A DNA stretch of 64,000 bases, from contig QAZA01000045.1 in NCBI GenBank assembly GCA_003054695.1, forward strand, positions 817,956-881,955. The letters are read 5' to 3'. The first letter of the stretch is position 1, and each line of letters opens with the position of its first letter. This DNA is from Verrucomicrobia bacterium LW23 (lineage in GTDB: Bacteria > Verrucomicrobiota > Verrucomicrobiia > Methylacidiphilales > UBA1321). The translations under genes and the position numbers were made by a program. Shown piece after piece: positions 23,157 through 27,556 of this stretch. The notes below the pieces were generated by a model. That model saw nothing but the letters and a program-made list of their open reading frames with translations, was not told where the DNA came from and did no database searches.

Positions 23157-23474
23157 ATGAAGACCACGCTCGAAATCGATGATGATCTTTATCGGCAGGC
23201 CAAAGCCGCTGCCGCACTTTCGGGCACGGAGATGGATGAGCTGGTGAGCGAAGGTCTCCGGCTGGTATTGCAAAAGCGCAGGGTTGCACGGGAGCCGCTG
23301 CCGAGAGAAAAGCGAAATCCTCGCCGGCTGCTTGGCCTGTTGAAGAGGGAGTTTGCCGGGCGAACGTCTGCCGAAATTCTAGACGAGCTTCGAGGGCCAG
23401 TGGAGCACGATGTTGCGGCTCGCGTTGAGGCTGCTCGCATTGCTGAGGAAAACGCCAAGGGAATTGGAGCCTGA
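23157..23474 (+). CDS. VapB-type antitoxin
   Basis: This 105-aa protein opens with MKTTLEIDDDLYRQAKAAAA, the ribbon-helix-helix signature of VapB antitoxins that bind DNA as dimers and use the C-terminal tail to neutralise a PIN toxin. The RHH spans about residues 1-40; the remaining basic then acidic tail would be the toxin-binding part. It ends 3 bp before the ATG of the PIN gene, so they form one operon. Because that toxin is interrupted, the antitoxin may now be free of its target. Confidence 0.8.
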   Translation: MKTTLEIDDDLYRQAKAAAALSGTEMDELVSEGLRLVLQKRRVAREPLPREKRNPRRLLGLLKREFAGRTSAEILDELRGPVEHDVAARVEAARIAEENAKGIGA

Positions 23475-23477
23475 TCG

Positions 23478-23957
23478 ATGCCGGCCATCGATAAGTCAGT
23501 GGTACTAGCCACACTTAAGTGTGAGCCGGGCGAAGCACGGCCAGCGCGTCTAGACGACAGGTGTAAGCAGGCGATTCTGAGAACCTCGAAGAGGTTCCAT
23601 CACTTAGCCCAGGGTTACCCGAGCGAAGCGATAGAACCCTGGGAAAAGTCGAGGGAGAGGACAACCCCAACGTGGGTTGCATCCCTCTGTCCAGCAACAG
23701 GATGCAACCCACGTTGGGGTTGTTCAGAAGTGAGTCCTTCACCCAGGGTTCTCTCGCTTCGCTCGGGGAACCCTGGGCAAGGTGATGGAACCTCTTCGAG
23801 GTTCTCGGAAAGGCATGCGCACGGCGGCAATCGCACCTCCCTACTTGCCGACTTCCTGATAGCCGCGCATGCCTTTGCGCACGCGACCGCGCTGGCAACT
23901 GCGGATCGCGGCTACACGCGCACCTACCTCCCCCGCCTTACCATCCTGCAGCCCTGA
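23478..23957 (+). pseudogene. PIN-domain (VapC-type) toxin interrupted by a palindromic element
   Basis: VapC toxins are Mg-dependent ribonucleases with four acidic residues. Here residues 1-33 keep a PIN start (MPAIDKSVV, Asp5) and residues 111-159 keep a PIN end (ADFLIAAHAFAHATALATAD, Asp125 and Asp143 spaced as usual). Between them residues 34-110 are encoded by a 228-bp palindrome (23579-23806) that has replaced or split the middle of the domain, including the second acidic residue. The insert is exactly 76 codons and has no stop, so the 159-codon frame stays open. Activity is very unlikely, but a stable product might still be made. Confidence 0.75.
23579..23806. repeat. Nested cruciform repeat, family C copy 1
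   Basis: The outer arms (23579-23643 and 23742-23806, 65 nt) pair with only about four mismatches; an inner perfect 23-nt pair lies at 23662-23684 and 23700-23722 (core CAACCCCAACGTGGGTTGCA). Each outer arm also contains a short self-complementary GAACCTC-GAA-GAGGTTC. Because of the symmetry both DNA strands encode nearly the same peptide (RTSKRFHHLAQG...). A diverged copy is at 27407-27556. Confidence 0.92.
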
Positions 23958-27342: not shown

Positions 27343-27406
27343 TGTTGCGGCAAGGATCTATTTTAGGATTATGACGGTTCAAGAAGAGATGTTCGCAAGG
27401 CTCTGA

Positions 27407-27556
27407 CAACCTCAACGAGGTTGTATAACCTAGCCTTGGGTAAAGGCGCGAAATCGAACGCCCCCAACGCGGGTCGCATCCCTTTTCGACGCCGAGGGAT
27501 ACAACCCGCGTTGGGGTTGATCTGAAACTGCCGCTTACCCAGGGGGCTTTGCTCTA
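27407..27556. repeat. Nested cruciform repeat, family C copy 2
   Basis: This diverged copy of 23579-23806 keeps the same modules in order: CAACCTCAACGAGGTTG (27407-27423), CCTTGGGTAAA pairing with CTTACCCAGGG, and the inner CCCAACGCGGGT...ACCCGCGTTGGG pair (about 27462-27474 and 27504-27517). Its right end provides the stop codon of the minus-strand gene at 27554. Confidence 0.8.

What the first reader, a model, noticed from the sequence alone, without database searches (positions are those of the whole stretch)
23478..23957. PIN toxin gene carries an in-frame palindromic element of exactly 76 codons
The frame starts and ends as a VapC PIN domain but residues 34-110 are encoded by a 228-bp nested cruciform. 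The element length is a multiple of three and has no stop, so the frame survives. Because the arms mirror each other, both strands encode almost the same peptide (RTSKRFHHLAQG...). This may be a mobile palindrome that landed in a toxin and disarmed it, leaving an orphan antitoxin. Sequence shows the structure; toxin loss is inferred.
Basis: partly seen in the sequence, partly recalled or inferred. Interest (0 to 1): 0.72.

Follow-up and report, generated by a model that had tools for sequence, protein, structure and literature searches.

The report
Palindromic jumping element in broken toxin gene
A 250-base palindromic mobile element, one of about two dozen in this bacterium, sits where the middle of a small toxin gene (vapC) should be; its hairpins match those flanking a little-studied class of single-strand transposase, which probably moves it.

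Summary
ORF 23478-23957 begins right behind a vapB antitoxin gene, ends as a PIN (VapC) domain, and has a nested palindrome (23567-23818) in between.

The palindrome is a dispersed repeat: 23 sites of at least 180 bp in this 6.6-Mb Verrucomicrobiota genome, plus many shorter ones. It is not a clean 76-codon insertion. About 57 central VapC residues, including a conserved Glu, are missing, so the toxin is very probably dead. The open frame on both strands is a by-product of symmetry; an intergenic copy has it too.

Best explanation: a non-autonomous element of the Y1 (HUH) transposase kind. Its order hp1-hp2-hp3-centre-hp3'-hp2'-hp1' is what flanks both Y...Q..HH Y1 transposase genes of this genome and most such genes sampled in the phylum (27 of 38 loci, against 0 of 22 other Y1 genes). 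A relative carries a transposase-bearing element and a similar ORF-less palindrome together. Y...Q..HH marks TnpA-Y1 'subclass 1.2', described as generally lacking such end structures; that is the novel part.

No experiment was done; no parent element with matching hairpins was found in this genome, and no element-free orthologue among relatives.

The parts
23157..23474 (+). vapB-like antitoxin gene (105 aa)
   Evidence: Pfam PF09957 VapB_antitoxin, E 6e-5, 23.3 bits against a cut-off of 23.4; homologues at 34-57% identity over the N-terminus in 21 of 387 other genomes
23478..23566 (+). vapC remnant, N-terminal ~30 codons (MPAIDKSVVLATL..., keeps the first Asp)
   Evidence: weak match to profile positions 4-18 of intact VapC homologues; starts 3 nt after the vapB stop
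23567..23818 (.). nested palindromic element, one of 23 sites of at least 180 bp in the genome
23581..23597 (.). hairpin 1 (GAACCTCGAAGAGGTTC)
   Evidence: outer base pair covaries G-C/C-G in 12 of 12 copies
23608..23643 (.). hairpin 2 (CCCAGGG...CCCTGGG), preceded by TTAG
23661..23723 (.). hairpin 3 pair and centre (ACAACCCCAACG... / ...CGTTGGGGTTGT)
23742..23777 (.). hairpin 2' (mirror of hairpin 2)
23788..23804 (.). hairpin 1' (GAACCTCTTCGAGGTTC)
23819..23957 (+). vapC remnant, C-terminal ~46 codons (GGNRTSLLADFLIAAHA...TADRGY...)
   Evidence: profile of intact homologues E 6e-21; up to 58% identity to intact PIN ORFs in the phylum sample
27345..27544 (.). second, partly collapsed copy of the palindrome inside a MITE

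Best explanation
23567-23818 is a non-autonomous mobile element made of two mirrored arrays of three hairpins. It is the ORF-less form of an element whose full version carries a Y1 (HUH) single-strand transposase of the Y...Q..HH type between the same two arrays. The transposase presumably recognises the hairpins in trans on single-stranded (lagging-strand) DNA and moves or copies the element; that step is inferred. One copy ended up in vapC. Around it about 57 codons of vapC were lost, probably by deletion promoted by the palindrome, although decay before insertion is possible (inferred). What remains is an open frame of 159 codons that lacks the middle of the PIN fold and one of its acidic catalytic residues, so the toxin is very probably inactive and vapB is an orphan antitoxin (inferred).
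For: Repeat family: 23 sites of at least 180 bp and many partial ones in the genome, 74-82% identical for full-length copies. Standalone copies with recognised neighbours lie between genes: cydA|cydB, beside gcvT, before miaA, beside bpX4, VWA and others. Transposase link: a blind DNA search with the window element in 288 other genomes of the phylum hit G134:C9:119478-119545 (E 5.5e-9), about 85 bp upstream of a Y1 gene at 119630. That array recurs at about 20 other places in G134, including an ORF-less nested palindrome (L056). Both Y...Q..HH genes of the own genome (L080/L181, L079) have hp1-hp2-hp3-ORF-hp3'-hp2'-hp1'. Over 38 Y...Q..HH loci, up- and downstream flanks are inverted copies of each other with score >14 in 27; 0 of 22 other Y1 loci reach that; distant flanks have median 8.5. 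Three loci brought in by an element motif from other genomes, Planctomycetota among them, carry such a Y1 gene beside the hairpins. vapC loss: intact homologues are ~134 aa; profile positions ~31-87 are absent from the window ORF. Instability: collapsed copies exist in which inner hairpins are deleted (L084, L087, L090).
Against: No Y1 gene flanked by hairpins of this very sequence was found in the own genome (95% complete, 56 contigs); its two Y...Q..HH elements share the order of hairpins and the CCCAGGG/CCCTGGG core, but hairpins 1 and 3 differ. Movement itself was not observed. No element-free orthologue of this locus was found, so insertion is inferred from homologues elsewhere. The canonical GTAG foot of REPs is not at hairpin 2 of this copy (TTAG). 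Covariation supports both the local hairpins and the long mirrored stem, so which form matters is open.
Confidence: 0.82

Rival explanations
1. A palindrome of the Rickettsia RPE kind that is selected for in-frame insertion into proteins, giving a working fusion protein.
For: The 159-codon frame is open, with no stop through 84 element codons. Intragenic REPs and RPEs that keep the frame are described in Opitutus terrae (also Verrucomicrobiota) and Rickettsia (PMC3733652).
Against: About 57 central VapC residues, including the conserved Glu, are missing. No other standalone copy examined lies inside a recognised gene. Frames are open in 13 of 138 cases, against 6.9% in shuffled sequence, and most copies have a stop in every frame. 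Intergenic copy L059 has the same mirrored open frame.
Confidence: 0.07
2. The palindrome is moved by a DDE transposase, as a MITE with terminal inverted repeats, not by a Y1 transposase.
For: At least 12 copies in this genome sit inside a TIR-bearing MITE with CTAG at its ends, and that MITE spread them.
Against: The window copy and about ten others lack those TIRs and have unrelated flanks. MITE copies without the full palindrome exist, so the palindrome is a passenger there. The hairpin arrays flank Y1 genes in many genomes.
Confidence: 0.08
3. Assembly artefact: a repeat joined two unrelated contigs at the palindrome.
For: The genome is a draft of 56 contigs with some 20 copies; the L017 and L018 regions are identical over 3.2 kb.
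Against: The window copy is at most 82% identical to any other copy, so it would not confuse an assembler, and the two flanks are the two ends of one vapC in the same orientation and frame directly behind vapB.
Confidence: 0.03

Closest known systems
TIRtrons / TIRYT and their dispersed TIR dimers (Di Nocera 2013, PMC3733652)
   Same: Y1 transposase gene between long inverted repeats; the repeats also occur without the gene as dispersed dimers.
   Different: Those TIRs mostly share GGGGWSAS and most of those proteins are subclass 2.1 with a C-terminal HTH (PMC6006769); here there are three successive hairpins per side and a Y...Q..HH protein of ~150 aa.
TnpA-Y1 subclass 1.2 (Quentin 2018, PMC6006769)
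   Same: Y...Q..HH motif, short protein, related to IS200 transposase.
   Different: Described as mostly Cyanobacteria/Bacteroidetes and generally without typical terminal structures or IS properties; in Verrucomicrobiota such genes have nested three-hairpin ends and ORF-less relatives.
REP / REPIN / BIME with RAYT (TnpA-REP)
   Same: Palindromic, mostly intergenic, inverted pairs, linked to a Y1 transposase; an xTAG foot before CCCAGGG (GTAG at L080).
   Different: About 250 bp rather than 20-40 bp units; the window copy has TTAG, not GTAG; the transposase is of a different subclass.
Rickettsia palindromic elements (RPE)
   Same: Palindromic element inside a reading frame.
   Different: Here mostly intergenic; the host protein lost its middle.

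Membership tests
Non-autonomous derivative of a Y1 (HUH) transposase element | dispersed multi-copy repeat without a conserved ORF of its own | tested here: met
   23 sites of at least 180 bp; most copies have stops in all six frames
Non-autonomous derivative of a Y1 (HUH) transposase element | ends shared with a Y1-bearing element in the same genome | tested here: inconclusive
   same hairpin order and CCCAGGG core at L080 and L079 but different hairpin 1/3 sequences; sequence-level pair shown only in relative G134
Non-autonomous derivative of a Y1 (HUH) transposase element | movement by the Y1 enzyme | not testable with these tools
   needs a cleavage or transposition assay
GTAG REP | GTAG/GTGG at the foot of a 20-40 bp hairpin | tested here: not met
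   TTAG precedes hairpin 2 in the window copy; the element is ~250 bp
TIRYT / subclass 2.1 | GGGGWSAS in the TIR and an HTH C-terminal domain in the protein | tested here: not met
   no GGGGWSAS on either strand of the element by reading the sequence; the own-genome Y1 protein is 151 aa with Y...Q..HH; HTH judged from length only
TnpA-Y1 subclass 1.2 (for the associated transposases) | Y...Q..HH motif in an IS200-like short protein | tested here: met
   all 31 loci of the homologue set, among them both own-genome genes with such flanks; NCBIfam transpos_IS200 E 2e-14, just under its cut-off
VapC / PIN toxin (the ORF as it stands) | complete PIN fold with its conserved acidic residues | tested here: not met
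   C-terminal part present, profile ~31-87 with the conserved Glu absent; whole ORF below the Pfam cut-off (17.3 against 23.6)
Rickettsia palindromic element | insertion mainly in frame inside genes | tested here: not met
   seven standalone copies with Pfam-recognised neighbours lie outside those genes

The most novel reading that the evidence does not exclude
TnpA-Y1 subclass 1.2 (Y...Q..HH) is a true mobile family in Verrucomicrobiota and Planctomycetota: its genes lie between mirrored arrays of three hairpins, and it mobilises ORF-less nested palindromes that occasionally break genes such as vapC. This would correct the published view that the subclass lacks terminal structures and IS properties.
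Probability: 0.6. Interest if true: 0.5.

Novelty: new variant of a known kind. Interest (0 to 1): 0.43.

Why it matters
It explains a class of long nested palindromes and spurious mirrored ORFs in genomes of the Planctomycetota-Verrucomicrobiota group, gives a little-studied transposase subclass a likely substrate that can be tested directly, and shows one route by which a toxin-antitoxin pair loses its toxin and leaves the antitoxin alone.

Tried and rejected
Rfam: only sub-threshold chance microRNA hairpins. NCBIfam on the element peptide: nothing. Element DNA in 59 same-order relatives: absent. Same-family relatives for an element-free vapC: only distant homologues. Selection for coding in the element: rejected, frames are mostly closed. 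The 15-nt inverted match between the right end of the element and vapC (23806-23820/23865-23879) is probably coincidence between the element's GCATGCC end and the conserved AAHA codons of PIN. Deciding between local hairpins and the single long stem by covariation: both are supported, not decided. PDB search with the C-terminal piece gave only chance hits, and with the transposase nothing.

Full report
What is in the sequence. ORF 23478-23957 (+, 159 aa) starts 3 nt after the stop of a VapB-like antitoxin gene (23157-23474; Pfam VapB_antitoxin E 6e-5). Its middle is a nested palindrome: outer arms 23567-23648/23737-23818 (82 nt, 88% complementary), inner arms 23661-23684/23700-23723 (24 nt, perfect). 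As a single strand it folds at -199 kcal/mol, z -21.8. The arms are themselves built of small palindromes: hairpin 1 GAACCTCGAAGAGGTTC, hairpin 2 CCCAGGG...CCCTGGG, hairpin 3 ACAACCCCAACG..., then the mirror order.

It is a dispersed repeat. Searching the own genome (6.6 Mb, 56 contigs, Verrucomicrobiota; the phylum is inferred from the kinship tables and from named loci, not from a label) gave 80 BLAST matches counted on both strands. Merged, these are 23 distinct sites of at least 180 bp plus many shorter ones. Two groups exist. At least 12 copies lie inside a TIR-bearing MITE (CTAGTG...GGCAARGATCTATTTTAGGAT) that carried them along; MITE copies without the full palindrome are present. The window copy and about ten others stand alone with unrelated flanks. 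Standalone copies with recognised neighbours are intergenic: between cydA and cydB, beside gcvT, in front of miaA, beside bpX4, nitrite/sulphite reductase, VWA and DUF4178 genes. Of those examined, only the window copy lies in a recognisable gene; three further standalone copies had no informative neighbour or were not tested.

What happened to vapC. The C-terminal 49 residues match intact PIN ORFs at up to 58% identity, 59% in the order sample. A profile of 16 homologues from the phylum matches them at E 6e-21 over positions 88-133 of 135. The N-terminal part matches only weakly (positions 4-18, DxSV motif), but its position behind vapB supports it. Positions of about 31-87, including the Glu conserved in nearly all homologues, are missing. 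So this is not an intact toxin with 76 extra codons: the element stands where about 57 codons used to be. Whether they went during insertion, later by palindrome-driven deletion, or before is not known; collapsed copies elsewhere (L084, L087, L090) show that these palindromes do delete. Loss of toxin activity is inferred from the missing core. Searches used the two pieces apart; the flanks were not joined.

The mirrored peptide is a by-product. Over 23 copies, 13 of 138 frames are open, near the 6.9% of shuffled sequence, and most copies have stops in all six frames. Intergenic copy L059 has the same pair of open frames on both strands with a similar peptide (TSKRLYILAQGSPSNAREPWE...). So the open frame says nothing about translation.

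What moves it. The DNA search with the window element in the phylum hit genome G134 at C9:119478-119545 (E 5.5e-9). A Y1 transposase gene starts about 85 bp further at 119630. The hairpin array upstream of that gene recurs at about 20 other places in G134; one of them (L056, C5:231033) is a complete ORF-less nested palindrome of the same design. In the own genome both Y...Q..HH genes (L080 on C50, L079 on C25) lie between the same ordered arrays, hp1-hp2-hp3-gene-hp3'-hp2'-hp1', with CCCAGGG/CCCTGGG in hairpin 2 but other sequences in hairpins 1 and 3. A motif scan of named genomes found the hairpin 2 motif in a Planctomicrobium MAG (several copies with the mirrored partner ~215 bp away), other Planctomycetota and Verrucomicrobiota; several further hits in other phyla look like chance. 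Three of these loci (L029, L037, L048) carry the Y1 gene beside the hairpins. The Planctomicrobium genome has about 20 such sites.

Test with controls. For Y1 loci of the phylum sample the upstream 220 bp was aligned with the reverse complement of the downstream 220 bp. With the first set (32 loci) the median was 22 against 8.5 for distant flanks of the same loci, P 3e-9. Split by motif, Y...Q..HH loci score above 14 in 27 of 38, other Y1 loci in 0 of 22 (highest 13.5); Mann-Whitney P 5e-5. The cut of 14 was read off the printed scores after the fact; the 95% cut of the distant-flank control (11) gives 30 of 38 against 7 of 22, Fisher P 7e-4. Loci are from different genomes for the most part but are not phylogenetically independent.

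Structure. On 12 aligned copies both the local hairpins (91.6% of cells paired) and the long mirrored stem (90.4%) keep pairing and show changes on both sides. The outer pair of hairpin 1 switches G-C/C-G in all 12 copies, whereas the mirrored partner at that position does not pair in all; the spacer between hairpins 1 and 2 covaries across the mirror instead. Both forms may matter.

Comparison with the literature. Di Nocera et al. 2013 (PMC3733652) described REPs in Opitutus terrae (Verrucomicrobiota) including intragenic ones, and Y1 genes flanked by long TIRs (TIRtrons) whose TIRs also occur as dispersed dimers. Quentin et al. 2018 (PMC6006769) defined subclass 1.2 by Y...Q..HH, mostly in Cyanobacteria and Bacteroidetes, generally without terminal structures and without IS properties. 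The present element works like a TIR dimer or REPIN but meets neither the GTAG nor the GGGGWSAS definition, and its apparent transposase is of subclass 1.2 by motif. I found no paper describing three-hairpin mirrored ends for that subclass, in an open-access library only. Hence 'new variant of a known kind'.

Limits. Function and movement are inferred. The parent element with matching hairpins was not found in this draft genome. No element-free locus was found. Subclass assignment rests on the motif, not on a tree.

Noticed in passing
window 27345-27544: A partly collapsed copy of the same palindrome inside a MITE with TIR GGCAAGGATCTATTTTAGGAT, 3.5 kb downstream of the vapC copy.
   Followed up: partly
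L090, L102, L105, L087, L062 (own genome): A MITE of ~120 bp (up to ~345 bp with the palindrome), CTAG at its ends as a likely target duplication, at least 12 composite copies; in L062 one sits at a CTAG inside another palindrome copy. Its transposase was not sought.
   Followed up: partly
L084, L087, L090: Stepwise collapsed palindromes (inner hairpins deleted), a natural series of palindrome-driven deletions.
   Followed up: no
L017 (C10:431-3666) and L018 (C9:145843-149078): Identical over 3236 bp near gcvT: a duplicated region or an assembly overlap.
   Followed up: partly
window 23806-23820 and 23865-23879: 15-nt inverted match (93%) between the right end of the element and the PIN AAHA codons; judged coincidence.
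   Followed up: partly
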